Part shown: positions 1-18,861 of the stretch, one piece after another
Layout of the letters: each line of letters begins with the position of its first letter
Position numbering within the stretch: position 1 is the stretch's first letter
Source of the DNA: Dactylellina haptotyla
Taxonomy: Eukaryota; Ascomycota; Orbiliomycetes; Orbiliales; Orbiliaceae
Assembly (NCBI GenBank): GCA_031310005.1
Contig: CM062385.1
Coordinates: 620,001 to 684,000 of the forward strand
Direction of reading: 5' to 3'
Length of the DNA stretch: 64,000 nucleotides
Program-made: the position numbers and the translations under genes
Notes under the pieces: generated by a model
The model's database searches: none
Told to the model about the DNA's origin: nothing
Seen by the model: the letters and a program-made list of their open reading frames with translations, nothing else

Positions 1-1216
1 CTTCAACGCATATCTTTCGTGAATTCAGAGTGCAAATTCAATCTTGCCCCTCACGTCAACAAAAACTTCGCGCGGTGCTAAAGGTCTGCTGTGGAGATGT
101 AACTATGAAACAAATTACAGGATGGGCTAATAAGACAATAGAGATAAACACAATAGAACAATGCTAAGCCGCCTTCTATTATCCTCGGCATGCTGTTTAC
201 CTGTGCTCATGATACCAATGTCCTCGCTTAAAGGGTTCCTGAGTTTGTTCCAGAATTTCTTCTTCGAAAATCTTGTTTATTTACTGGTCCCACTATCACC
301 AAATGCCATAGAACGTGGCGAGTAAAACATTCCGCTTTGCATGAAAGCAGGCGGCTAGCAAAGGCAGAAACAAGGGAATGAATCCGAATGTAGTCAATGT
401 ATGCGCGGTAATAAATTATCTTTCTTGTATCTGCAGGCTCTTTCTTGTACCTGCAGGCCGATCTGGCAATCGGATCGGGTTCGAATATTCCGGTAAACGA
501 GACAAGTCTAGTCCACGACGGGATACTGTTAACTGTGTATATCGGGGTTGTGTATTTTTTGGGAATCTGGGAAGAAAGACCGCGGTATCTTCTTTTCACA
601 TTCGCTTATAGTCTTGGTCACTCGATCGTAACCTTGTAAGGAAAAAATTCTCCCAGGGAAAAAGGCTTATAATTTCTATTTTTGATGTTAGATTCTTGTT
701 CTCCCCTGCCACGATTTTGGCGTTTGAGTTCGATGATTGGGTCAGTCAGAACCTTGCGCTACGCATATCGCCGGATAGAAAATTGAAAGCTACCGGTACC
801 TGGCATCCAAGGCATTGGTACCTTATGACGGAGTATAGGAAGAAGAAACGAGAGAGAAAAAGGAAAGAGTGTCGTCAGGGATTGAAGAAGCGGAGCTCAA
901 TTCTAGAATCCTTCGGCATGTTCGGCCAAAGGCTTCCTGCTTGCATTATTGAAAAAAATTTATGGAAAATTTTACGGAAAAAATTTGTTATTTCACATAT
1001 TCACATTAGCTCATCCAGTTTAAAAAGATGTATAAATGTACTGTCTGGAACTTCTATTTGTTTGAACAAAATATTATACCCATCCTCAAAACCCAATCCA
1101 AACCTGACTCAATAATGTACACTGTAATATAACTTTAATTCCTTATAAGCCAAGCGGTTTCACTACTGACCTCACACTCGTTTTCATACTACTTTCATCT
1201 AAAAACATTGGCAACA
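1..1216. other. Intergenic region upstream of the NRPS
   Basis: No convincing gene is seen. Short open frames on both strands, including one of 139 codons at 696-1115, have no recognisable motif, no intron signals and AT-rich low-complexity ends. The last 200 bases before the NRPS start are AT-rich and should hold its promoter and leader. I see no clear TATA box. Confidence 0.5.
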
Positions 1217-4200
1217 ATGTCCGCCCAATCAACCAAAACTTTATCAGTGGTGGTCGAGCCATTTTCCCTTTTCGACAATGCAGCTGCTGTTCACGGGGCC
1301 CTTATGGAGATTGAATCTCATGGCCTCATCCCTCGTTCCTCCATATTAGACCTTTATCCATGCACACCCATGCAAGAAGGCTTCATGGCACTATCTGCCA
1401 TAGATAAACACTCGTACGTCTGTCAATATGTATTCGATCTACATCTGAACGTCAATCTGGAGCGTTTAAAAGAAGCATGGCGAGTGCTCGAAGAATCCTG
1501 CGAGCTATTGAGAACACGGATCGCGATAACAGAGACGCTCGGTACGGTTCAACTCGTCACATCGAAGGAGACAGTTTGGAAAGAAACAAAAACTCTGGAA
1601 GAGTACCAAAAATGGGACAGAGAAGAAACAATGGACTTCGAAGAACCGCTGAGCCGTTGTGGACTTGCAGACAATGGCAAGTATTTCATCTGGACTGCTC
1701 ACCATGCGATAGCAGATGCATTCAGCATGAATATAATTTTCAGAGAACTGAAGCGAATTTACGGAGAATTGTCGAACTCATCATCGAGCCACGGATCGAC
1801 AATTGTGCCGTTTAGATATTTCGTCCACGACCAGATCAGCACAGATGCGAAGGCAACGGAAAGCTATTGGCGTAAATACCTAGCTGACTGCCCAAGCTCA
1901 GCCTATCCAAAAATCAACAGCACAACTCCTCATGACTCGTCCCCGAATCAAATGATATCCGATACTATGACGATTCAACGTGTGGGCGGATCCAAAATTA
2001 AAACTTCAACTATCGCCACTGCTGCATGGGCAATAGCAATGGGGCATTACACACAATCGGACGATATAATTTTCGGAACGATAAGCGCCGGCCGAAAGGG
2101 ATCTGTCCAGGGCGTCAGAAACATGGCTGGTCCTACTCTGACAACATTTCCAGTCCGTATCACACTCGACCCTACTCAAAGTGTGACGAGCCTCCTAGAA
2201 TCCATACAGGCAGATGGTGAATATAGAGTGCCATACGAACAGTTTGGACTTCGAAGGATTGCTCAAATGGGCCCTGATGGGCGCAAGGCGAGCGATTTGC
2301 GAAACCTCTTTGTAGTCCAGCTTCCACATAAAGTGAGCTATGACCAGGCACCGTTGCCTATGAAGATCGTCTCAGAACCAAGTTATAAACATCCATACCC
2401 GTTAATGATGATCTGTATAATGGACCAACAGAAACTTACTCTTGAGGCACACTACGATGACGCAGTGATGTCCTCGAACGAAATCCGGGTGCTCCTAAAC
2501 CACTACATGCATATTGTTCAGCAGCTTGCGGAGGCCGAGTCTTCTCCGCGGTTATTACAGAACGTGGACCTCTTCACTATACATGATAGGATGCAAGTAC
2601 AGAAGTGGAACAGTATTCCGTTGAAGGAGAACTATGTCTGCCTACACGAGCTCTTCGAAATGCAGGCTAAAATCCAGCCAGATGCAACTGCTATCTCTGC
2701 CTGGGATGACCAGTTCACGTACCGAGAGCTTGACGAGATATCAAACAAGCTAGCTGCAGAATTAATGAGAATCGGTGCTGGTCCGGAGAAGATTGTACCC
2801 GTTTGTTTTTCCAAATCTGCCTGGACTCTTGTATCATTGCTTGCGGTACTAAAGTCTGGAGCAGCATGCATGGCAATGGATGCGTCACATCCACTAGCGA
2901 GGCTTCAGGCAATTGCTGCGGATACCAAGGCAGAGATAATCGTCGCAGGATCCGAGCACGTTGAATTGTGCAAAAGTCTCGTCCCTTTGGTAGTACCTGT
3001 AACTCCATCATTTGTCCAGAACCTACCGAATGTGGGTCGTGTACGATCACAAGTTCGCCCGAACAATAGAGCTTTTACATTGTTCACTTCTGGAAGTACA
3101 GGAACACCCAAGGGCATGGAAATCGAGCACCGAGCTATCTCGACAAGTCTTCTCGGACAGTGCGCCATTTATGGTATTGGACCGGGCACTCGAAGATATC
3201 AATTCTCTGGATACAGCTTCGACGCAAGTATGGCAGACATGTTCTGCCCTCTGATATCTGGTGGCTCTGTGTGTATTCCGTCTGACCACGACCGCATCAA
3301 CGACCTTGCTGGAAGCATAAACTCGATGAAAGCAAATCAGTTGTGCATGACACCATCTGTAATCGGCTTGCTGGATCCTGGTACGGTACCAACTATTCAA
3401 TCTGTCCTACTTGGAGGCGAGGCAATGACCCACGAGATTATCCAAAAATGGGCGGGCCGTGTTAGATTATTTAACGTATACGGCCCATCCGAGTGCTCAA
3501 TAATCTCATCGACAATGGAAAACAAGGTAGACGCTCCGAAGTCAAAATCAGCTTGTATCGGTTACGCACTGGGATGCCGGAATTGGGTTGTAGAACAACG
3601 TGCTTGCACCAGTTGGAAGCATTGGTGAGCTGATGATTGAAGGACCAATCGTCGCAAGGGGATATCTCGGTCGACCTGAGCAGACTGCTGCGTCGTTCAT
3701 TGAGAACCCATCCTTTCTGCAGGCGGATTGGGGTTGCCAGAATATCTACCCGAGGGTATACAAGACGGGTGACCTGGTACGATATGATGTGGACGGCACC
3801 CTCATATTTGTTGGACGCAAAGATACTCAAGTCAAGTACCATGGACAAAGAATCGAGTTGGCAGACATTGAAGAGAACTTGAGAGGCAGTAAGTATGTTC
3901 AGAACTGTATGGCGCTTGTACCAAAGGCAGGGTCGCACTCCGGACAACTTGTTGCCATACTCGAGCTCAATCAAGCTGCAGATGGGTCGGCGGATGCAGA
4001 AGATGACTTCATTCTTAATATCGACGTCGTTTCGGGTAAACTCACCGCAATACGTTCATATGCGTCTGCAAATATCCCGCCCTACATGCTACCCACGGTT
4101 TATTTGGTTTCGACAAAACTTCCACTCAACAATTCAGGAAAATTGGATCGAATAAAAATTAAAAAATCCGTCGAAACTATGTCCAAGGCTAGCAAAGAGT

Positions 4201-7200
4201 TGCTCTCATTGTCTGCGACTTCGAAGAACGCCTCGGCGAATGATAGCAAGGCGGCGACTATGGGAGTACTATCTACAAGAACGGAGGAAATTATCCGGAA
4301 CTGTTTCGCCAGAGTGCTCAGTCGCCAGCCTTCGGATGTGCCACTTGACCAGTCTTTTGTAAGGCTTGGTGGAGACTCCATTTCTGCAATGGAGCTTGTT
4401 CCAATGTGCCGCAGAGAGGGAGTTATCGTTACCGCAAAAGATGTGCTCCAATGCGAAGGTATCTCAGATCTTGCCACTCGAGCAACAAGCAATGGAATGC
4501 AGGTTGGGTCGAATTCGGAGACCAACTCCGATCATCAAGCCGTCACGCCATACTCCCTTCTCAGCCGAGTTGGAGAAGTCCAAGACGTTCTAAGTGAAGT
4601 CGAGTCTCATCATGGAATAGCTAGACGCTTTATCGCGGACATCTACCCGTGTACTCCGTTGCAGGAAAGTCTCATGGCACTTACAAAGATCCAAAAGAAT
4701 GCCTACGTTACGCAAATGGTCCTCCCTTTTGTAGCGCAAATCAACGTTAGCCAGTTTCAAGCAGCTTGGGAGCGAGTCGTGGCTAGGAACGATATCTTGC
4801 GTACTAAGATCATACAATCACCTCGTTTTGGTTCCTTACAAATTGTTTTGAAGAATGCCAATGCATCACTTAGCAATGTGGCCGACCGATTGGACGGCTA
4901 CCTGGCTGCTGACAAGGAGATACCCTTTGATTACGGGGCTTCACTTTGGCGGGCTGCCATCGTAACAGAGGGCAAGCAAATGTTCTTTGTTTGTACGATG
5001 CACCACTCTGTTTATGACGGATGGTCTTTACCCTTGATGTTGCAACAACTAGTTTTGTTTTACGATGGGAAATCAATCTCACCCTTCAGTCCTCGATTTT
5101 CTGATTTCGTCAAATACCTTGGAGAAATAAACGACAGTACGTCAGAGCGGTTCTGGCGCGGGCAGTTGGAAGGATACCAGGCGAAAGATTTCCCCGCTCG
5201 ACCACTTGATGCTCACCATATCCGTCAGAGCCAGACTTCGTCGTTCCCTATCTCCTTTACGAAACACCAAGGTAAAAATACAACAATAGCTACGCTAATC
5301 CGTGCGTCTTGGGCTTTTGTGGTGTCTCAATACTCCGAGTCTTCCGATGTTGCATTTGGAATGACAATGAGTGGAAGAAATGCGCCAGTGGATGGGATCA
5401 TGGAAATGGTCGGTCCCACCATTACGACAGTTCCTGTGCGAATTCAACTTCAAGCACAAAAACTAGTTTCCGAGTTTCTCGAAGCTGTTCAAGCACAGGC
5501 TACCAACATGATACCATATGAACACAAGGGATTGCAAAATATTGGTCGCATGGGCCAAGATTGCAAGAGCGCCTGCGATTTCCAGAATATTCTAGTCATT
5601 CAGACATCTAATGACCAAAAGAGCACCGGAAATATCTTTGGGCCCGCAATAATTCCTGCTGATTTTGCAGCTAACTTCACATCATATCCCCTTGTGGTGG
5701 AGGCTAATCTTGGAAAGTCTGCCATAAACCTGGAGATCTCATTCGATGCGAACACCATCAGCAGAGTTCAAGTTGAACGTTTGATGTTCCATTTCTCCCG
5801 AGTTTTCGAAATCCTCCATTCCGCCCCTGCTTCAATGAAAGTTAGCGACATCGATATGTTCAGCTCTCATGATCGAATGCAAATAGAAGAATGGAATAAA
5901 GAATACCCCGAAACTTTACACGAATGCATTCACGAAGTAATCCAAAAGCATGCTCATATCCGACCATTTGCCGAGGCAGTTTACGGTTGGGACCGAAGCT
6001 TTACATACGCCGAGTTGGATGTATTGTCAAGTCAACTTGCTGAACATCTAGTTCGAAACTTCTCTATTGGAGCCGAAAAATTCGTTCCTATACTTTTCGA
6101 GAAGAGCGCCTGGGTAGTCGTGGCAATTATGGGCGTCCTAAAGGCAGGGGCTGCTTTTGTGCCACTCGACATCAACCATCCCCGTCAACGACTCGAGGAA
6201 ATTATTGGACAAGTGGACGCCAAAGTTGTGTTGGCTACGCCGACGACTGAGAAGCTACTTGATCGTATGATGTTGAATAAGGTGGTTATTTCGGGCGATT
6301 GCTTTGAAAACGGCTCCTATAATCTTGAAGTGGCGCCAACTGGAATGGAGAGCGCCAGACTGGATCGTCCAAGCACAATGCATCTTCATCAGCGTGCAAA
6401 TCCACGCAGTCCTGCTTACACGATCTTTACGTCCGGCAGCACTGGTAAACCCAAGGGTGTTGTAATTGAACATAGCGCGATATGTTCGGGATTGGTGTCA
6501 CGACAAGAATCCTGCAATCTATCTTCTGAGACTAGAACACTCCAATTCTCGTCATTTAGCTTCGATGTTAGCGTGGAAGACATTCTGGCCCCCCTAGCTT
6601 TTGGAGGCTGTGTCTGCATTCCATCAGAAGAAGAACGGTTAAACAATATATCTGGGTTTATCAGAGAATCCCGAGCCAACTCCCTCGCTACTACGCCATC
6701 ATTTGCCAGTACACTCAACCCAGGTGATGTGCCATCTCTAAGATATTTGAGACTTGGTGGTGAGAGGTTGACATCTGCCCAAGTTTCAAAATGGGCTGGT
6801 GTTCTATCCTTGAAGAATTGCTACGGACCAACAGAAACTTGCATTTCGGCTACCCTTAGTGAAAAAGTCTCCTTCAAATCCGATCCTTCTAATATTGGTA
6901 AGGGAATTGGAACAGTCACCTGGATAGTGAACCCGGACGATGCGAACTACCTTACACCTCTGGGTATGGTAGGTGAACTCTTACTCGAAGGCCCACTGCT
7001 AGCGAGAGGCTATCTGAATGATGAGGAGAAGACACGCAATAGCTTCATCATTAATCCAAAGTGGGCAGTTTCCGGCAGACCAAACGAGACCCGCAGATTC
7101 TACAAAACCGGAGACTTAGTACGATACGGTGCGAACGGCGACATTCTCTACATTGGTCGCAAGGACACACAAGTCAAGTTGCATGGCCTCCGTATAGAGC

Positions 7201-9014
7201 TGGGCGAAATTGAACACCACATCAGTCAGCACATCCCTCCATCATGGAAGGTCGTTGTTGAAGTTGTCGATTCGATACGTGGTGGACATAAGTCTTCGTT
7301 TTTGGCAGCAATGGTCTCTGTCGAAGAAAACAGTAACGGCCATACGGTTTTGCCCATGACAGACGAGCTGCGAGCAATGTTCCAATCTTTAGAAACAAAT
7401 ATTAAAACCCAGATCCCGCACTACATGGTGCCCCAGTTATACGTGCCACTAAGTGGATTTCCGAGCACTATCGCGGGCAAGACAGACAGGAAAGCTTTAC
7501 GAGCACTGGGAAGTCAAATCGCATCTATGGACTTGATGCCGTATTCTATTTCAGCCAAAGTGGACAAGGAAATGCCAGCAACGGAATTGGAGGCAAGCCT
7601 ACAAGAAACCTGGGCAAATGTTCTCTGTTTAGACAAAGCGGATGTCGGAGTTAACCAGAGTTTCTACCAGCTTGGAGGTGACTCTATCACCGTGGTCTCT
7701 CTTTCAGCTGCGATCAAGAAGGAGTATGATGTTGCTGTCAGTGTGCAAAGTCTCGCAAATAGTCAAGTCACCATTCGAGACCTAGCTACACAAATACAAC
7801 ATGCCAAAGCGGGTGAGGTTGTGGAAGAACGAAAAGTCGATCTCTTGAAAGAATTCGATGATTGCATGGAGGAGATTACGCAAGACGCTGAAAGGTCGAG
7901 GGTATTCTTGACTGGCGCGACAGGGTTTTTGGGAACGCAAATTCTCAGACAACTTCTAAATCTCGAGCATGTCAAGAAAGTAGCTCTGCTTGTTAGGGCA
8001 AAGAGCGTTGAAGAAGGTTTGAAACGTGTCATTGAAGTTGCCCAGGAAAACAAGTGGTGGCGCGACGAATTTGCGACCAAACTCGAGATCTGGACTGGAG
8101 ACTTGGCGAAACCTCGGTTCGACATGACAGCGGAACAATGGATCAACCTGAGCGGATCGATCGATACAATCATTCACAATGGAGCGATAGTCAATTGGAT
8201 CGCTGACTTTGACGCCCTAAAGCCTGCAAATGTTCACTCCACCGTTCAGTTGTTGAAGATAGTGAACAGATCCCCTGCGAAACCGAGATTCGTCTTTGTC
8301 ACAGGCGGTGCTAGCTTTGAAAACGACATTCTAGAAAACCGCAAAGAGATTAGCACTATGCTCACGAAGAGTAATGGGTACGCTCAGTCGAAATATCTCG
8401 CGGAGATATTGGTGAGACAATTTGCTACAACTCCGGCAGCAGGCGATCGTGTTTCAGTTGTCAAGCCATCATTCCTGATTGGTACCCAAGAGGAAGGTGT
8501 CGCAAATACAGACGACTTCTTTTGGCGTGTAGTAGCCAGCGCGATGGAAATTGGTGCATATCCGATCGAAGAAGACAACTGGCTCACTATCTCTTCCACT
8601 GCCAACGTTTCCGCTACAATCCTCAATCAGGTAATGGGCGAAAATGTTGACACTTTTATCCAAGTCCAAAACGGACTGCCCGTGAAAGAGTTTTGGGAAA
8701 TGCTAGTCAATGAATTGGGCTACGAGATGAAGCCAATAGAGTGGACGAGTTGGCTCGGATTAATGCACCAAAGGCTCGAAGTTGTGGGCAAAAACCACGT
8801 GCTCTGGCCAGTGTTTCAATTCCTTGGTCAGTTAGGTATCGCAAAGCAACCCACAGAACTAGAAGAAAGTCAGAAAATTCAGATAAGAACAGCATTGAAG
8901 AAGAATATCGAGTATCTTGTTGGGATTGGTTATCTTCCTAACGCTAATGGAAGAAGATCCGGGGATAGGATATTGAAAAAAGGAAGAACTGCGGTCGTTC
9001 GTGCGAGGTTATAA
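1217..9014 (+). CDS. Two-module NRPS with terminal reductase, frameshifted in the first A domain
   Basis: Non-ribosomal peptide synthetase of about 2,600 codons, apparently intronless, order C-A-T-C-A-T-R. Approximate nucleotide ranges are C1 1310-2580, A1 2640-4150, T1 4270-4480, C2 4610-5870, A2 5930-7490, T2 7570-7790 and reductase 7890-8930. Visible motifs are HHAIADAFS in C1, FTSGSTGTPKG and YGPSE in A1, LGGDSI in T1, HHSVYDGWS in C2, FTSGSTGKPKG and YGPTE in A2, LGGDSI in T2, and FLTGATGFLG plus YAQSK in the NAD(P)-binding reductase. By family rule the reductase releases the thioester-bound peptide as an aldehyde or alcohol. No epimerase, methyltransferase or thioesterase domain is present. 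The first ATG in frame is 1217. The reading frame shifts by one between about 3590 and 3600, yet the remaining 1,800 codons are open. This is therefore either a recently inactivated gene or a sequence error. Domain calls are firm; the product is unknown. Confidence 0.93.
3555..3612 (+). other. Frame break inside the first adenylation domain
   Basis: Upstream the gene reads in the frame of 1217 until a TGA at 3626-3628; downstream it reads in the frame of 3600. Compared with the same stretch of module 2 (WIVNPDDANYLTPLG), module 1 has WVVEQ then VLAPVG after the shift. It is about 11 nt shorter between W and the final G, which fits a small deletion. A 58-nt GT-AG segment (3555-3612) would restore the frame if spliced, but it would remove the conserved IGYALG...WVVE segment, so a gene caller may have placed an artificial intron here. 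Confidence 0.75.
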
Positions 9015-10116
9015 ATTTCTTTCATTTAGTTGATTGTATTGTGTCTTTTCTAAAAGTTTCTTTTGGTTTCCTTAAAAAGTTAACGTTTAGCCTTGAGGCT
9101 AGTTAACGTTGTCTTCTGTTTCTCCTCTCTTTGCATGCATTTCAAAAGGTGTTGATTTTCTTTTAAAAGTTATTGTTTCATTTCACTTACATTTGGGCTA
9201 GCATAGATGGCGTTTTTGAATTGGATTCTTAGCTTAGATTAGTTGATATCAGGATGTTAAAAATAGAACTAGAATAGATCAAAAACTAATCGAATGTTTT
9301 TTAAAACTTTTTACAATATTTTCAACCTCGAGTGCTCCCTAGAATATCGCCAGGAGGAGAGAAGATGAAATTATGCCTCTCACTCTATATTTGTTATATT
9401 GGCTAACACTATAATCCACCTAGCACATATCCCACGAGATTGGACTACGATCACAATCACAGTATTTCCTGGTTTAATTATGGCTATCAATACGTCGATG
9501 GTTGGCACACCCCATGAATTTATTTCAAAGGCTGAGCTCAGTGCCAAGCTTCAAGTCAAACAACGGTAGGGACTTCGAGGCTTGACTGCGCTGCTGTGCC
9601 GCACAAATGCATATAAATTTCTCAAATTCTAACCACACAAATGGGCGAAGCATCGAGCTGCCCAATTTGTTTCTTAAGGCGGTTTTTGACAAGCTTTAGA
9701 CATAGAGTTCGGAGCTTTGATTCGTTTAGATCTCAAAGAAAGCTGTTATCTAGGCGCACCTCACTGCCGGCTCCTCTTAAATCCTAGCTCTTTTCGTATC
9801 ACTCAGGCTTATCACTTAGCGCTTGAGGCTGTACTTGACCAGCCATCCGGTCAGCAAATTTTAGGTGTCCAAGCATTTAAATATTTATCTTTAACGAGCA
9901 GATACCCTATTGCGACGCTAGAATATTACCTATAATCTCATGTGTCCGTTATGTTGAAACACTTCACAAGCTTTGTTGCCCGACATTCTATTAAAATTCT
10001 CAATATTGCACCAGCATTACAGTCGCTACCTAAGATACGACTACTTCTGTGCGGAAATTTCGAAATTTTTAGGACCCGACGCATTAAAGCCGTTGAAGAG
10101 CGGGCTTCGGGCATAA
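9015..10116. other. Intergenic, NRPS 3' region to DUF6536 gene
   Basis: AT-rich stretch without a supported gene. It holds a small interrupted inverted repeat at 9079-9107 just after the NRPS stop. Short frames at 9717-9935 and 9942-10130 show no motif and are probably chance. The right end is the promoter side of the DUF6536 gene. Confidence 0.5.
9079..9107. repeat. Interrupted inverted repeat after the NRPS
   Basis: Two GTTAAC hexamers (9079-9084 and 9102-9107) flank a TAGCC-TTGA-GGCTA hairpin (9088-9101), with a 3-nt bulge on the left arm. It lies 65 bases past the NRPS stop, so it would be in the 3' untranslated region. A role in transcript end formation is only a guess. Confidence 0.35.
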
Positions 10117-12856
10117 ATGGTCGCCGTTAAAATGCAGGCTGCAATGAAACGAATATTAAGTTTACTAACTGGCGATTATGGAGTTAAAGCTACGCTCTTT
10201 ATACACCTTTTATTCGCTACGATCATATTTGTCTTCAATATAGTAGCCATAGTTTATGGATCAACTCGTTCGATCGATTTATCCTCAGAGCAATATGATG
10301 ATCCTCGGCTGGGTCGTCCTCGTCGCTCCGAACTCGCTCCAATCTACAGAGATGCTTGTGCGACGGTTCAATCATTCGATACATGGCTACATTTACTCAT
10401 AAATATCCTTTCCACCGCCTTGCTAGGTACCTCCAATTACTCAATGCAGATATTATCTGCATTGAACAGAAAACAGGTAACGCCTAATTTATATATACAT
10501 ATATATAGGGAGCTTAAAAATCTTAAAGGGATACAATAGTATTCTATTTACACACGTCCTCGTTTTAATTTTCTTCATTTCAACTAGGTTGAAGAGTTCC
10601 ATTCCCAACAAAAATCCACCGACATTGGAGTTTTGAGTATCGGGAATATAATCAAAAAGGGAAAGATTATCGTTTTTGTGTCGTTAGTGCTTGGGCTGAC
10701 ATCCCTGCCTATTCACTTGCTGTAAGTATAAACTCACCATTTATCAAAGGAATATATCAGCAGGTCAGATAATATATACCCTCAAAATCGCTTGAGGATA
10801 ATAAAAAATAATATCGATCTTGTTGGAAATTTTATGGAATTCTAACATAAACCTAACACACCACCCGGTTAAAAATTAGTTATAACTCCGCGATAGTTCA
10901 GAGTCAGGGGATAAACGGAGCCCTTACAAATATCGTAACCGAGGACTTCTTCTTTAGGATAAACACACCCGACAATGTTACTAACGCTCGATGGATCGGT
11001 TTCAAAGACACACCTTACCGTAATTTCGTACCTGCAGAGGAACTTAAATACCAGACGGCCGGAGTATGGAATTTCGGTAGGAATACTAGCTACAGCTATG
11101 TTGCGGACTCGCTCGAGATGCTGAGGTCCAGAGTCAATGGTACCAAGACAGCGCCAGACGGGTCATACTACGAGAGTTTAGGTCAGACGGAATGCCGAGA
11201 GGAACTTTTATCCGCCTCAAGCATCTCTACATTCTCTAGTAGCTTCCTAGTCGCAAACCAGTCGGCTTTCACTAATAACGCTAGTGTAATCTTCTATGAA
11301 ATGACCTACCCTGCCGAGCGGTATGAAGTTCTACAGAACGAAACTTTAAGGGACTTACGGATAAGGCAATATTTGGGATTGAATCAAACAGATCCGGTAT
11401 TCGACAAGTTCAAACGCGAAATCAGGGCTGATTTCAGCTGGGAGGTTGAATACTGTCTGATCAATAAAACTCCAAATATTTGCAGATTGGAAGTTTGTAG
11501 GGAATATTGATTTCTGCCGATATAACTTGCTTGTTTGCTTTACTGATATGTCTCTTTTTACTTTTAGCGGTTCCGATCCTGATAGTTACATCGATTTGTG
11601 GATTATTGAAGATACTTTGCATAGGTTTTACCCTATATTACCTTCGTGGATCCGGCTATAAGGACATCTTCCTTACCATTGGCGACGCTATTTCTTCTTT
11701 CCTAACTTCGCACGACCGCCATACCCGCGACTCGGCTCAAAAGTTTATCTCTTACTCCGCATTCGATAAGCGCAGGAGAGCGCACTGGCCATTGATGAAA
11801 GAGAGTAGTACCTACGATAGCGATGATCGAAGTGATAGAGCCCGGTTTTACGCTAGCCCGAACCATTGGATTTTTTCGATTGCTGTGTAGGTCGGACACA
11901 GGCTCCTGCAGATATAATTAATAGCTAGATATGTTTCTAATCGTTATAAATACCTACAATCGATTCTTGCAATTAAGTTCCGTTATAACTGGATTGATTG
12001 GAGCCATAGTCTTTTTCAACGAATTTCAACCACTCGGCGCTCGGAGCGAACTATTCAGCTGGAGAGATTACGCGGCAGAAGGATACCCTCAAACCGGTTA
12101 CAATAAATTCTACCTCCAAGTTTTACAAATCAACACGCCTCAGTTGATTATCTCCTTGATTTACATCCCGTGAGTTTCTACTCTAGTCGCATGACATGTC
12201 TTGTAAAAGAAACAATATCTAACACCTTTTATATCCCAAGAATCAACGCCATATTAACAATAGTGTGTATGAACGAAGAGTTCATACGGTACGGGCGTCG
12301 ACCGGGACCGCTCAGACTGACGGAGCCTAAAGGAAAACAAAAGGGCACATATTTCCTTTCTCTGCCCTTTCGCTACGCTATACCATTACAAGTGATATTC
12401 ACTCTCCTCCACTGGCTCTTCTCACAGGGTCTCTTTTACAAGCGAATCAGTTTCTATGATTGGTTTGGACGGACTAACAATTCGCCCTCTATTTCCGGAA
12501 TATTCGCCCGAGCGGGCCCCATACAGATATTTTTTATCCTATTCTTAGCGATGGTATTATTTCTATTCTTCCTGTCGTGGACGAAATACCCTGGCGGTGC
12601 ACCGATTGTTGGGACGTCTACCGCTGCCATCAGCGCCGCCTGTTGGGGACCTGAAGGCTCGGCGATCGCAGAGTCGGACACTATATGTTACCGGGTTCTC
12701 ACAAAGGCTGCCGCTGGTGGAAGCGACGATGAGGAAGAAACCTCGGCAGAACCTTGGACGCCCTGGGTCCCGGTTGAGGGTCGGGCGGCCGAGAAATGCG
12801 GATTCACGGATGACACATCCTGCCCTGAAATTGAGAGTGGAGGTCAATATATGTAA
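10117..12856 (+). CDS. DUF6536 multi-pass membrane protein
   Basis: Fungal integral membrane protein of unknown function, about 745 residues. Hand-built exons are 10117-10476, 10588-10721, 10880-11496, 11568-11886, 11978-12169 and 12241-12856; all phases agree. Family signatures are CATVQSFDTWLHLLINILST, the TSLPIHLLYNSA join across intron 2, VEYCL...CRLEV, and INTPQLIISLIYIPINAILT across intron 5. Intron 3 (GTAGGG...TTTTAG) rejoins CRLEV to SVPILIVTSICGLLK, matching the family spacing and removing an apparent frameshift. Intron 4 is less sure: 11887-11977 ends in AAG, and 11885-11924 is an alternative adding about 16 residues. In-frame ATGs at 10132 and 10144 could be the true start. It lies just downstream of the NRPS on the same strand, but no link in function is shown. 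Confidence 0.82.
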
Positions 12857-13427: not shown

Positions 13428-14473
13428 CTAATAGTCAACAGCCCAGCCGGCATTTTCTTCCAAAAACTCTGTGCAGACTTGTTTGAGCGCCAAGTTCGGT
13501 CGCAAGTCCTCTTGCCGTAATGGTTCTCTTGTGAGTGGATCGGTGTTACTCCGTCTAAGGTGATCCATAATAACGGAGCGATCATACGAGTGACCATTCT
13601 TGGTAACTACTGGATCTGTCATAATACTATATATTTATAGTATTAGCATATAATTTAACACCCAAAGATGAGATCGTCCCGTTCTGAACATACCTAAATG
13701 ATATCGAATCGATCAAGTAATCCGGCACCTCCCGTGGTTTGTACCGCTGCGGGTCCGCTCTCGCGAAAACATTCTCGAGCTCATCCATCTGCACCCTAGC
13801 ATCCTCTCTGATAACATCCATCTCACTCTCAAAGTCTCTCTCCTCATCTGAAGAATCCCATTGGAGCTCTCTAAGCTCTACTATTTTCCTCTCAGATTCA
13901 GTCTTTATTAATTCTTTCATCTGCTTGAGAGTCGAATTATCTTTGTCGATCCGATTACGTTCCAGCTTCTTCCACCGTTGCTTCTTAGCCTCTAGGACGA
14001 CGTTGGCTACGTCTGTTGCAGATTTGGAGTGCTGCGCTATGGCGAGCTGGTAGGCTGTCATTGCGAAGCCAAGGGCCTCGCTCGGACGAGAGAGCTGGAT
14101 GAGTGCCTGCGCTGCCATGTAGTGACCCTTCACTATTACAGGTGTGAGTAGATTTTAAAAGACAAGTTGAGAAGAAGAAACTCACTCGCATCACGATTGA
14201 TGTTAATAGCGGACATGCAATCATTGATAACATCCTCATATCGAAGAAGTTTCATTCGAACCAAAGCTCTATTTGTGAAGAGCGCGAAATTCGTAGGATC
14301 GATAGCGATCGCTTGGGAGTACTTCTTATCAGCGCCCAACCAGTCTCCATTTTGGAAACATCTGAATAATTTTATTAAAATTCATGGTAAGCGAACACTC
14401 CGGTTCCAGCATGTCAAATCCTTTGTGTGTATACTTACTTGTTGCCAGCTTGCTTGAGGTCTTCGGCGCTCAT
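13428..14473 (-). CDS. CHIP/STUB1-type TPR and U-box ubiquitin ligase
   Basis: Co-chaperone E3 ligase of 282 residues. In the animal and plant family the TPR repeats bind the C-terminal EEVD of Hsp70/Hsp90 and the U-box recruits an E2 to ubiquitinate clients in the cytosol. Exons on the minus strand are 14473-14439, 14361-14186, 14132-13694 and 13626-13428. The protein starts MSAEDLKQAGNKCF, followed by TPR motifs (DPTNFALFTNRALVRMK, then GHYMAAQALIQLSRPSEALG), a charged coiled-coil linker (WKKLERNRIDKDN onward) and a U-box (DYLIDSISFSIMTDPVVT, then GHSYDR and DPLTREPL). The first exon is only 35 nt. The U-box is intact across intron 3. The protein ends shortly after the U-box, as in other CHIPs. 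Baker's yeast has no clear CHIP orthologue, to my knowledge. Confidence 0.9.
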
Positions 14474-15114
14474 TTCGAGGATATTCGGAGGCATTACAAT
14501 CCGAGAAGTCGGGACGGACCGTCAGCGAGTGTATGTATCGCCTCTCCGAATAATTGGCGAGCAATCCACCAAATGACCCGGATATCTAAACAGCAGCGGG
14601 TTACGAACAACAGACCGATCTGGCTGATTCAGACTGGAGGTCGAACAGCGTCGGCAGGAGCTACTGCACTGGTTGGAGTGGAAACACTGTTCCAGATATC
14701 AAACGTTGTTGGCGCAACAACGACGCACAGCTACGAATTAAACCGAAGAGAACAGACGAACGAAAGGGAAATGGAAAACCGGTCCAGAGGCAAGTTTGAA
14801 AGAAATGAGGGATAATTCCAAGAGAAAAGGCGTCGAGGCGAGATATAGACAAGAGGAGAGAGTTCACCTTTCCTGTATATCAAATATGTCGGTCAAATTA
14901 AGCGCTTCATGCAGCCTCATTAATTTCGTCAAGGCTGGGGGAAAGAAGGAATGCAATGCTGCACACACGCAAACTAGGCCAGCCTCACCGTCGTTGGATG
15001 ATGCCGGGTTCGATTTGTAAGCGGCGCAAAACGGTCTCGAAACATCCAAAAAAAGTAGTTGGGGTAACAGTGGGGAGAAGAAGTGAGATGTCTTGTATCC
15101 ACTCCTGGTCTCTC

Positions 15115-15122
15115 TATATAAA
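15115..15122 (+). promoter_or_regulatory. Orphan TATA box
   Basis: TATATAAA preceded by a CTCT tract. It stands about 1.1 kb upstream of the NAGS start and about 640 bp upstream of the CHIP start, so it fits neither well. It could drive a non-coding transcript or a far upstream start. Evidence is the sequence match only. Confidence 0.3.
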
Positions 15123-16041
15123 CGCCAACCAGAGGAACCGGTGTTCGCGTGTCCGGGGAATGGATACTGTGGTTCGTGGTCGTGGTTGGATCAGATGGGC
15201 GTCGCAAACGCTGACATGATATGGCCACTCTCCCTGCCGGCTGATACGCGGCAACGGATGGAAACTAAAGTCATTCGGGCAGGGCAGGCGAAAGTTCCAG
15301 AATCCCGGGACTTCCTGTGCCTGAAAGCAACATGTACCGTGTGGACTCCGCAAACCGAATGGATCAGAGCAAACACCTTTCTTTGTGCGAGTCGTGACCC
15401 CGCCGGTCCTGGGCTTGCCAAAGGATAAGGCCTGGGCAATCAGAGCCTTCCCCTCGAGCACAGGAGTGTCAGTTTATTCGCACAAGCTGCTGCCTGCACC
15501 TGCCTTTACCGATCGTTTGCTTGGCCGGTTCGGGCCAGCTCGTGCGACAACGGGACCCCGGTAGCTACCTGTAATATATAGCTAATACTTTCTGATAATG
15601 CGATTGAGAGGCTGTATGTCTATCGTCACATCAATCTCGCTGTGCGCCATCCGTATTATTGAGAGTGGAAAAAGCCGTTACCGGAAGCTCTCCCGTTCGG
15701 CTGTCGTCATGCGCGGAATATTCCATATGCATCGCCTCAGCTCCGAGCTCCATCGAGAAGATGAGTTGGGTTTGACGTCGCCGACAACAAGCGAACGAGC
15801 CCCGCGTTTTTCCTTTTCTCTTGCATACCCGGCCGCATTGCTCACACCGCACACACATACTTCCAGCCAAATTCACTCCCTCGTGAATAAAGGACCATTC
15901 AGAGTGATGGACGGAAAGGGCCCACTGCACCCCATTGCCCTATTCATTATAGCATAGTCGCATATTCTTCTCCTTCGTATCCGCCACCTGTAGCGCTCCA
16001 GCGTTTTTAAACCTTGGGACTCGCTCGAATCCCTCGCTCTC

Positions 16042-16048
16042 TGACTCG
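16042..16048. promoter_or_regulatory. CPC1/Gcn4-like site, distal
   Basis: TGACTCG, one mismatch from the cross-pathway control consensus TGACTCA, 170 bases upstream of the NAGS start. Arginine genes are classic targets of Gcn4/CPC1/CpcA in fungi, so the position makes sense, but a 6-of-7 match can arise by chance. Confidence 0.35.
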
Positions 16049-16149
16049 TATATCAAACAGGCCCCCAAGCTGGAACAAAGCCCGTGATGCCCCCAAGAGG
16101 CCAGTGTTCTAATCGCAGATACCACTTCCCTCCTCTCCAAGGATCCTCC

Positions 16150-16156
16150 TGAGTCG
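16150..16156. promoter_or_regulatory. CPC1/Gcn4-like site, proximal
   Basis: TGAGTCG, matching the TGASTCA consensus in six positions, 63 bases upstream of the NAGS start. It may lie in the leader instead of the promoter. Confidence 0.3.
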
Positions 16157-16218
16157 AATTTCAAGCCCAGAATCAATCTTTTTTCAAACTCGCAGTTTGG
16201 GTGGCTAGGCCCTTCGCA

Positions 16219-18234
16219 ATGAAAGGTTTCGTCGTGCCTACGTAAGTTCCGCAGCTTGTTTTTTCAGTATCACATGCTCCGGGGACCCATTGGCTTATCA
16301 TACATTTTTATCCAGCCGAAAAATATGTAGGTTAGGTGAAATCAAGGGACTGTCGAATCTTCTTAGAGATGTGTCACAGCAACAACGGGGGTTTGCGGCG
16401 ACGCCCTCCGCCGGCCAGCAGCAGCAGCCTCAGAAGCAGCACCGGCAGGCTAAAGAAGAAGCCAGAGTAAGAACTACTCTGCCAATTGATCTCCAATTCG
16501 GTCTTAGTATTGACATATAGTCTATCGTAGGACCTCTATCTCTCCGTACTCCAAGCGTCATCGACGAAACGAGAAGCTAAGGCTTATTTACAACGGTTCA
16601 AACCGCCTCTAACAGCGATCCAATCTGTTGCACCCTCTGAAACTGCTACAACTACATCTGAACATCATGAAGACGGAGGTTTCTCCTCAATTGTCACCAG
16701 CGAGCTTGTCCCAGGTGCTTTGCAGAAGATGCAAAACCGAGAATTCATCCGGGATCTTGTCCGACGAAAGTCACGCCCCCAGGCGTTCGAGCAGTTCTCA
16801 GAGGAATGTTTTGCTCCCGAGATCTCGGACCAGCAACTTCACCTCGCCCTTGTAAAACTGCGTGGTCCCCAGAACTTAAGCGATGTGGAACTCGCAGCGA
16901 TAGGAAGAACATTGAAGAAGTTGGGGAGACTCGGTTTGGGTTCCATTGTGGTTGTAGATGTTAACGAAGACGGGAAACCCGGTGCACCAGAGGAATCCGA
17001 TCGGGAGTTACGGGTACTTCATATCACACAGATGGAAAGGGTGGTTTCTGCAATCGAGAATGCTGGAGGACAAGCGAGAAGTGTCGAAGGCTCTCTCTCG
17101 ATCGATCATAACGGAGACAGCCACGTCCTTTTGCCGTCTCTCATACTCGCGCCAGCATCTCGAGGCGCTATCCCGGTCATCCCAGCCCTAGCTTACGACC
17201 ACAAACAAATGCTAAAACCGACATCCCCAGACTCTGTCCTGGTAGCTCTTTGCCATCTGTTGACAGACCTTCAAGATCCTGGAGATAATCAGACCGGAGA
17301 ATCACCAACCGCACCGATGACACTTGATCGACTAATCATTCTAGATCCCCTGGGAGGTATTCCATCTTTCGAACGGGCTTCCGGTGCTCACGTCTTCTTG
17401 AATCTAGAGCAAGAATACAGCAGTGTATTGTCAGAACTTCGGAGCAACAAGACTGCTCAAACCGGCACCCACATATCAACTCTCAGAAGTCTTCGACAGT
17501 CCTTAAAGCTACTTCCCTCAACTTCCTCCGCCGTTATCACAACCCCACAAGCGGCCATGACGCACGAGGGGCCGCAGGAGTCTCGAAACCCACTCATCCA
17601 CAACCTGCTAACGGACAAACCCGTTTTCTCCTCATCGCTGCCAATCACACCTTCGACACCGCGAGTCATCACAACGCTCCTAAAGCACGGTGTTCCTCTG
17701 CTGATGCTACCACCATCCGAGTTTGGAAAGAGCCAAACACTAACATCGCATCCTAAAATCAATATGGAACGACTAGTCGAACTGATAGAAGATTCGTTTG
17801 GAAAGAAACTAGACGTCGATCATTATGTTGACCGCATCGATAAGAATATCGCGGGGGTGGTAATTGCCGGTGATTACGATGGTGGAGCGATTATAACCTG
17901 GGAAGAAGGGCTAAACGGTAGAAAAGTCCCTTATCTGGATAAATTTGCCGTCGCCCGGAAAGCACAGGGGACAGGTGGTGTCGCCGATGTGGTTTTCAAA
18001 GCCATGCTCGCGCGGAAGGGTATGTTTTCGAAGGAGTTGATATGGCGGAGCAGGCAGAAGAACCCGGTCAATAAGTGGTATTTCGAGAGGGCAAAAGGGA
18101 CCTTCAAATTGCCGGACGGCAAATGGACAATGTTTTGGACGACAGATGGTTTAGTTGATAGCGGGACGGGGGATAGGAGGTTTCAAGAGTATGTGAAGAT
18201 ATGCGAAAATATAGAGCCCAGTTTGTCGGAGTGA
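16219..18234 (+). CDS. arg2: Mitochondrial amino-acid acetyltransferase (N-acetylglutamate synthase)
   Basis: Makes N-acetylglutamate from glutamate and acetyl-CoA (EC 2.3.1.1), the first step of ornithine and arginine synthesis in the mitochondrial matrix. Exons are 16219-16241, 16316-16466 and 16531-18234, giving 625 residues. The 23-nt first exon carries the ATG. The N-terminus is basic and Gln-rich (SNLLRDVSQQQRGFAATPS), as expected of a matrix presequence. Then come DLYLSVLQASSTKREAKAYL, typical of the fungal family, a degenerate kinase-like region, and the C-terminal NAT domain with RLVELIEDSFGKKLDVDHY, GDYDGGAIITWE and ARKAQGTGGVADVVFKAM. The length and order fit fungal Arg2-type enzymes. 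Two TGAC/GTC sites upstream suggest cross-pathway amino-acid control; this is inferred. Confidence 0.93.
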
Positions 18235-18861
18235 ATTTGGGGGCATGTACAAAAGTTATGTTTTACTTTACGATCTCATAAACCATATCAGCGGTTCCCG
18301 GCCTCAAGGCTTTGTAGTAATATAGACCATCATATTCTATATTTGATTTCTCTCCAGCCGCTCGAGGCGGGCAACGCAAACCTACCAATATTGCAACATT
18401 TTGCATACAGAACGATACAATGGCAAAGAGTCGATCCTTTGAATCAGCGACAGAGTGCATGTTCGATATCCCCCGTGACGGACCAGGGAATATCAGCATA
18501 TTAAATGCCTAGCAGATGTAGACATCTCACAATTTCGGGATACCCTCCATACATCCCTCAATGTTGCGAGATCAATGGATCTCAATATCTCTACTTCTAT
18601 CAGTAATATCCTTTCTCTCTCTCTACTTGACAGAACGAGTGGCTCAACCTTCTTTGTACGAGTGCCTTATCCCAACTACCAGAATCATAAAGGGAAGACC
18701 GGGGCATTGCGGAAAAGGCCACCAGGAAGTCATTAGTGTTATTCCCTAGCATCCTAGATGCTGAAATATATCTACTTTCTTTTTCAATACATGGTAAGTT
18801 ATAAATATCAATTCGCTCTCAGATAAACACTAAGGTATCTATAGACCGTAGAACTCCGAAG
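18235..18861. other. Intergenic, NAGS to orphan low-complexity gene
   Basis: No gene seen. A GTAAGT donor-like site at 18794 directly after an ATG (18791) and acceptor-like sites at 18822 and 18844 hint at a leader intron of the next gene. The frame is open in phase from 18823 to 18862, so an upstream coding exon is possible but cannot be fixed. Confidence 0.4.

What the first reader, a model, noticed from the sequence alone, without database searches (positions are those of the whole stretch)
1217..9014. Reductase-terminated two-module NRPS with no partner genes in view
Domain order C-A-T-C-A-T-R is read directly from motifs. A reductase end implies an aldehyde or alcohol product, and two A domains imply a dipeptide. 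A leading C domain without its own donor module implies that an acyl group or peptidyl chain arrives in trans, as with acylated peptide aldehydes. Hand-aligned specificity positions are D-A-A-C-L-G-V-I-I for A1 and D-V-E-A-R-G-C-I-S for A2 (GrsA numbering 235, 236, 239, 278, 299, 301, 322, 330, 331). I do not recognise either as a known code, so the product may be new.
Basis: partly seen in the sequence, partly recalled or inferred. Interest (0 to 1): 0.7.

Follow-up and report, generated by a model that had tools for sequence, protein, structure and literature searches.

The report
Orphan fungal peptide synthetase, frame broken
This is a large fungal enzyme gene of a known kind that would link two amino acids and release them as an aldehyde or alcohol, but its reading frame is broken in the middle of the first amino-acid-selecting domain, so in this genome it is probably an inactive relic.

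Summary
The domains are real: condensation (C), adenylation (A), carrier (T) and thioester reductase (R) in the order C-A-T-C-A-T-R at 1217-9014. They are not in one frame. Frame 1208-3628 holds C1 and the front of A1; frame 3600-9014 holds the back of A1 and the rest. The change lies in the A5-A6 linker of A1, near 3596-3605, with TGA at 3626-3628. None of 17 frame-rejoining GT-AG pairs has a GTRNG donor, and each removes conserved A1 sequence. In controls, 10 of 11 frame joins within other genes have such a donor candidate; the eleventh is explained by two introns. The host is an unnamed fungus. The left flank is now read: of 36 other frames of at least 250 aa in 144 kb, 23 have a Pfam family, none a partner synthetase, acyl ligase or P450; 13 have none. 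A transcription factor lies 5-7 kb upstream. The architecture is in print (A. terreus ATEG_09068). Best reading: an orphan dipeptide-aldehyde synthetase, probably a young pseudogene. A sequencing or assembly error is not excluded. A new member of a known kind.

The parts
1217..3628 (+). First open frame: C1 and N-terminal part of A1, ending in TGA
1349..2542 (+). C1 condensation domain; motif HHAIADA at 1700-1720 (last position not the usual Gly)
   Evidence: PF00668 8e-48; motif
2654..3577 (+). A1 N-terminal part; motifs A1, A2, A3 and A5 found; specificity positions DAACLGVII (read by eye)
   Evidence: PF00501 1.5e-48, profile 1-350 of 384
3596..3605 (+). Approximate place of the frame change in the A5-A6 linker of A1
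   Evidence: three-frame translation and intron enumeration
3600..9014 (+). Second open frame: A1 C-terminal part, T1, C2, A2, T2, R
3624..4151 (+). A1 C-terminal part with motifs A6, A7, A8, A10
4290..4478 (+). T1 carrier domain, LGGDSI at 4365-4382
   Evidence: PF00550
4635..5885 (+). C2 condensation domain, HHSVYDG at 5001-5021
   Evidence: PF00668 2.6e-51
5943..7490 (+). A2 adenylation domain; motifs A1, A2, A3, A5, A6, A7, A8, A10 found; specificity positions DVEARGCIS (read by eye)
   Evidence: PF00501 2.5e-63
7581..7802 (+). T2 carrier domain, LGGDSI at 7671-7688
   Evidence: second PP-binding stretch and PF23297 at 1328-1401
7902..8870 (+). R thioester-reductase domain: TGATGFLG at 7911-7934, YAQSK at 8379-8393
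   Evidence: PF07993 1.2e-43, TIGR01746 246 bits, PDB 6nki 4e-57

Best explanation
A two-module fungal non-ribosomal peptide synthetase with a terminal thioester reductase, standing alone between a regulator gene and housekeeping genes, whose frame is broken inside A1. As built, A1 and A2 would each load an amino acid, C2 would join them, and R would release the dipeptidyl thioester with NAD(P)H as an aldehyde or alcohol (inferred from the families). Because A1 is split at the A5-A6 linker (shown), the product in this genome is most likely a truncated C1-A1 fragment and the gene a young pseudogene (inferred): the rest is still open and keeps its motifs. What C1 did is not settled. Its altered HHxxxDG motif and the lack of any donor found make a vestigial C1 at least as likely as acylation in trans.
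For: Domains and motifs. Two frames, TGA at 3626-3628. Of 17 GT-AG pairs of 40-120 nt that rejoin the frames, 0 have a GTRNG donor (0 of 16 with a narrower acceptor rule). Four of the 17 have a branch-like motif within 30 nt of the acceptor, and all four end inside or beyond motif A6 (3624-3647). Linker from IG to PxG: about 20-21 residues in A1 against 24 in A2, counted by eye. Controls: of 11 frame joins that I take to lie inside one gene (C7 synthetase 5, C8 hybrid 2, Nup170-like 2, Lys2 1, Lon 1), 10 have a GTRNG donor candidate, and the eleventh, in C8, is explained by two introns with donors GTAAAG and GTGAGT. No partner among the frames scanned.
Against: No reads, transcripts or close relatives could be examined, so a sequencing or assembly error is not excluded. 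803 plus 1804 codons are open and the core motifs on both sides are kept, which also fits a working gene with one wrong stretch of sequence. Codon scores around the junction are weak and do not by themselves fix the switch point. One control join, in the C7 synthetase, has donors but no branch-like motif, and another only distant ones. Joins tested without a candidate, which I take to lie between genes without proof: C7 3380-3979 to 4128-5225, and C8 4504-5529 to 5797-6276, 6320-7021 to 6900-10841, 13961-16225 to 17282-17950 and 17282-17950 to 18289-18753 (coordinates on the reversed stretches); 6320-7021 to 6900-10841 again gave no good donor.
Confidence: 0.6

Rival explanations
1. The gene is intact in the organism and the frame change is an error of sequencing or assembly. 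The enzyme then works as a C-A-T-C-A-T-R synthetase that releases a dipeptide aldehyde or alcohol, or a pyrazinone formed from it.
For: Core motifs on both sides are kept and 803 plus 1804 codons are open.
Against: The linker looks 3-4 residues short rather than one base off, the site is not a homopolymer run (sequence), and the 11 control joins in other large genes of this assembly all have intron explanations.
Confidence: 0.3
2. The frames are joined by an unusual intron or by ribosomal frameshifting.
For: Pairs that rejoin the frames exist: 41 GT or GC pairs of 35-160 nt, 17 GT pairs of 40-120 nt.
Against: None of the 17 has a GTRNG donor, and each removes part of the conserved stretch between A5 and A6 or of A6 itself, which is already short. 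No slippery site was looked for.
Confidence: 0.04
3. Two chains are made, C1-A1(N) and A1(C)-T-C-A-T-R, which pair to form a split A1.
For: ORF2 has an internal ATG at 3633.
Against: That ATG lies inside motif A6, and the frames overlap, leaving no intergenic space for a promoter. No fungal precedent is known to me; I did not search for one.
Confidence: 0.03
4. About function, not about the break: the synthetase is, or was, the downstream half of an acyl-peptide aldehyde line such as fellutamide, with the acyl or peptidyl chain handed to C1 from another protein.
For: A leading C domain. [quoted passage not shown]
Against: No inpA-like or inpC-like neighbour among the frames scanned. C1 has HHAIADA. 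The other C-domain loci found have architectures of their own.
Confidence: 0.15

Closest known systems
Aspergillus terreus ATEG_09068 (NRPS, C-A-T-C-A-T-R, no product given)
   Same: Identical domain order as listed in Table 1 of PMC4274970 (passages seen).
   Different: No sequence compared; no fungal genome collection is offered here.
Fungal NRPS with terminal R of PDB 6nki (recalled as PhqB of the paraherquamide pathway; the tool names it only 'NRPS')
   Same: R domain is the best solved match, E 4e-57 over residues 14-358 of 386.
   Different: PhqB and MalG, as recalled, start with A-T and have no leading C. No prenyltransferase family was among the matches in the scanned flanks.
Fellutamide synthetases inpA and inpB
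   Same: NRPS pair for tripeptide aldehydes; the 2327 aa of inpB would fit a two-module enzyme plus R, but its domain order is not stated in the passages seen.
   Different: Cluster with an acyl ligase, a transporter and a proteasome subunit; none of these was among the matches here.
Asperphenamate ApmA
   Same: Fungal NRPS that ends in reduction to an amino alcohol, N-benzoylphenylalaninol (PMC7843940 passages).
   Different: Works with ApmB, a second NRPS; not seen here.
LpsD of Aspergillus leporis
   Same: Two-module NRPS whose expression gave ergonovine; [quoted passage not shown]
   Different: Lies in an ergot alkaloid cluster; its first module groups with lysergic-acid-specific Lps2.

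Membership tests
Multimodular NRPS | Repeated C, A and T domains in order | tested here: met
Multimodular NRPS | One continuous coding sequence for the two modules | tested here: not met
   Frame change in A1 with TGA at 3626-3628
R-terminated NRPS | C-terminal thioester reductase with nucleotide-binding and YxxxK motifs | tested here: met
   TIGR01746 over cut-off; TGATGFLG and YAQSK
R-terminated NRPS | Aldehyde or alcohol product | not testable with these tools
   needs enzyme or metabolite data
Acylated peptide aldehyde line (fellutamide type) | Partner NRPS and fatty-acyl-AMP ligase beside it | tested here: not met
   none in 70 of 263 non-focal frames of 110 aa or more over 144 kb, all 36 of 250 aa or more included, three of these in part, 13 of the 36 without any Pfam family
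Acylated peptide aldehyde line (fellutamide type) | Leading C domain with intact HHxxxDG | tested here: inconclusive
   HHAIADA: both His and the Asp kept, Gly changed
PhqB/MalG type dipeptide-aldehyde NRPS | A-T-C-A-T-R without a leading C (order recalled) | tested here: not met
   C1 present

The most novel reading that the evidence does not exclude
The two frames are expressed as two proteins that reassemble a split first adenylation domain at the A5-A6 linker, giving a two-chain reductase-terminated synthetase whose product, from two unrecognised specificity codes, is a new peptide aldehyde, alcohol or pyrazinone.
Probability: 0.03. Interest if true: 0.7.

Novelty: new member of a known kind. 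Interest (0 to 1): 0.25.

Why it matters
It turns a promised new product line into a caution: reading motifs alone joined two different frames. If intact orthologues exist in related fungi, they would be candidates for an orphan peptide aldehyde, alcohol or pyrazinone made without the usual gene cluster. If the break is real, the locus is an example of a lone synthetase being lost in a fungus in which few condensation-domain loci were found.

Tried and rejected
Specificity codes as literature strings: no paper. Bacterial origin of the R domain: the scan of genome contigs confirmed two weak relatives among 31 stretches, 33% and 37% over about 60 residues each; a single-protein scan reaches close relatives only. 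AlphaFold of the R domain alone: mean pLDDT 36, discarded, no fold search made. Papers describing MalG or PhqB: none found in the listings and passages seen. Intron rescue of the frame change was considered and set aside. My GTRNG donor filter was too strict for one control intron, in C8, with donor GTAAAG and a TACTAAT-like branch; relaxing it does not help the focal site, because the listed pairs still remove conserved A1 sequence.

Full report
What was claimed.

Where it lies. The window is C7:620001-684000 of a 39.8 Mb genome in 11 contigs. Nucleoporin (Nup170-like), MDM31/32, Zn2Cys6 and Fungal_trans_2 families and short introns point to a filamentous fungus. It could not be named: 5.8S rRNA was not found and the SSU search did not complete.

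The domains are real. Hmmscan of the first frame gives Condensation 8e-48 and AMP-binding 1.5e-48. The second gives two PP-binding stretches, Condensation 2.6e-51, AMP-binding 2.5e-63 and NAD_binding_4 1.2e-43. NCBIfam's thioester reductase TIGR01746 is over its cut-off (246 against 213 bits), while the first frame reaches only 226 of 317 bits for the adenylation model TIGR01733, matching positions 1-310 of 409. Core motifs were located in both modules. The strings occur in no paper of the library.

The frame is broken. ORF1 runs from ATG 1217 to TGA 3626-3628 and ORF2 from 3600 to 9014 in another frame. Pfam follows A1 to residue 790 of the first frame, and motif A6 begins at 3624 in the second. 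In three-frame translation the strand IGYALGCRNWVV stands in the first frame and LAPVGSIGELMIEGP in the second, with almost nothing between. Counted by eye, the A1 linker has about 20-21 residues from IG to PxG against 24 in A2, so sequence seems to be missing rather than spliced. Codon scores around the junction are weak. One search listed 41 GT or GC pairs of 35-160 nt that leave an open frame; one search listed 16 GT pairs of 40-120 nt, with a slightly wider acceptor rule, 17. None of the 16 or 17 has a GTRNG donor. Four of the 17 have a branch-like motif within 30 nt of the acceptor; three end at 3642, inside motif A6, and one at 3658, beyond it.

Controls. I take 11 frame joins to lie inside one gene, because domain matches run across them or the frames follow closely: five in the C7 synthetase, two in the C8 hybrid, two in the Nup170-like gene, one in Lys2, one in Lon. 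Ten have a GTRNG donor candidate; the eleventh, in C8, is explained by a 54-nt GTAAAG and a 69-nt GTGAGT intron. One C7 join has no branch-like motif and another only distant ones. Other joins tested (one in C7, four in C8) gave no candidate; I take them to lie between genes, without proof. One further C8 join with a candidate (5797-6276 to 6320-7021) was left out of the count because I do not know whether it is inside a gene; the C6 rows compared overlapping frames and are replaced. The controls make a general assembly fault less likely but cannot exclude one at this site.

The neighbourhood. The left flank, 60 kb, and 20 kb right of the window were fetched. Of 265 frames of 110 aa or more, two are the synthetase. 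Of the other 263 I scanned 70 with Pfam, among them all 36 of 250 aa or more, three of these in part. Of the 36, 23 have a Pfam family and 13 have none. Families found over the 70: NAT of N-acetylglutamate synthase, DEP, AAA, Lon, DUF92, Arv1, MDM31/32, DUF6536, CHIP_TPR_N, a WD40-type propeller, a PF05148 methyltransferase (recalled as rRNA-processing), a phosphoribosyltransferase, MTHFR, nucleoporin, cyclophilin, NOG1, thioredoxin, a kinase, HAD, TPR, a ZIP zinc transporter, one short-chain dehydrogenase at window -36930 to -36085, a Zn2Cys6 frame at -4957 to -3914 whose gene also carries C2H2 fingers (read by eye), and a Fungal_trans_2 frame at -19027 to -17867. None is a P450, an acyl ligase, a second NRPS or a major-facilitator transporter. 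Short frames and small exons were mostly not scanned.

Other synthetases in the genome. PF00668 gives ten rows: two here; one on C8, in a locus with PKS, C, A, T and R families; five pieces of one locus on C7 at 976-984 kb with A, T and several C domains, in the manner of fungal siderophore synthetases (a likeness recalled); and a 470-aa frame in equal-scoring copies on C3 and C4. Counts from that search are lower bounds. The two modules here are 30% identical over 386 residues for C and 41% over 316 for the shared part of A. The other loci reach at most 29% for C1 or C2 and 38% for A2 over 100 residues or more; A1 was not compared with them.

The reductase. Its best solved match is 6nki, E 4e-57, ahead of MxaA at 4e-31. 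The tool calls 6nki only 'NRPS'; I recall it as the PhqB reductase, whose enzyme gives a dipeptide aldehyde. That makes a dipeptide aldehyde, perhaps closing to a pyrazinone, as reasonable as an acylated peptide aldehyde. A single-sequence fold of R was useless (mean pLDDT 36).

What is known. The architecture is in print: ATEG_09068 of A. terreus (PMC4274970, passages). C-terminal aldehydes or alcohols from fungal NRPSs are described for asperphenamate (PMC7843940), fellutamides (PMC7071103 and PMC10734572), ergonovine (PMC13278392) and fusaoctaxin A, which ends in leucinol (PMC6563249); passages only were seen of each.

Verdict. A real but ordinary kind of synthetase, alone and broken in A1. 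A young pseudogene is most likely (0.6), a sequencing or assembly error next (0.3). The product cannot be named.

Noticed in passing
L009:4398-6178 (C7:614398-616178): Transcription factor gene with C2H2 fingers followed by a Zn2Cys6 cluster (bounds read by eye), the nearest gene with a Pfam domain that I found to the left of the synthetase.
   Followed up: partly
C8:384001-404000 (L032, L033): PKS-NRPS hybrid with a terminal reductase domain, its A domain interrupted by introns.
   Followed up: partly
C7:974001-990000 (L030, L031): Synthetase with A, T and several C domains in the manner of fungal hydroxamate siderophore synthetases.
   Followed up: partly
C3:16878-17216 and C4:1202971-1203309: Equal-scoring 470-aa frame with a condensation-like match on two contigs (HHVIGDG read in the C3 copy), the C3 copy 17 kb from the contig start; perhaps a duplicate.
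   Followed up: no
window 10117-10536: Frame with a DUF6536 match just downstream of the synthetase, perhaps the first exon of a membrane protein.
   Followed up: no
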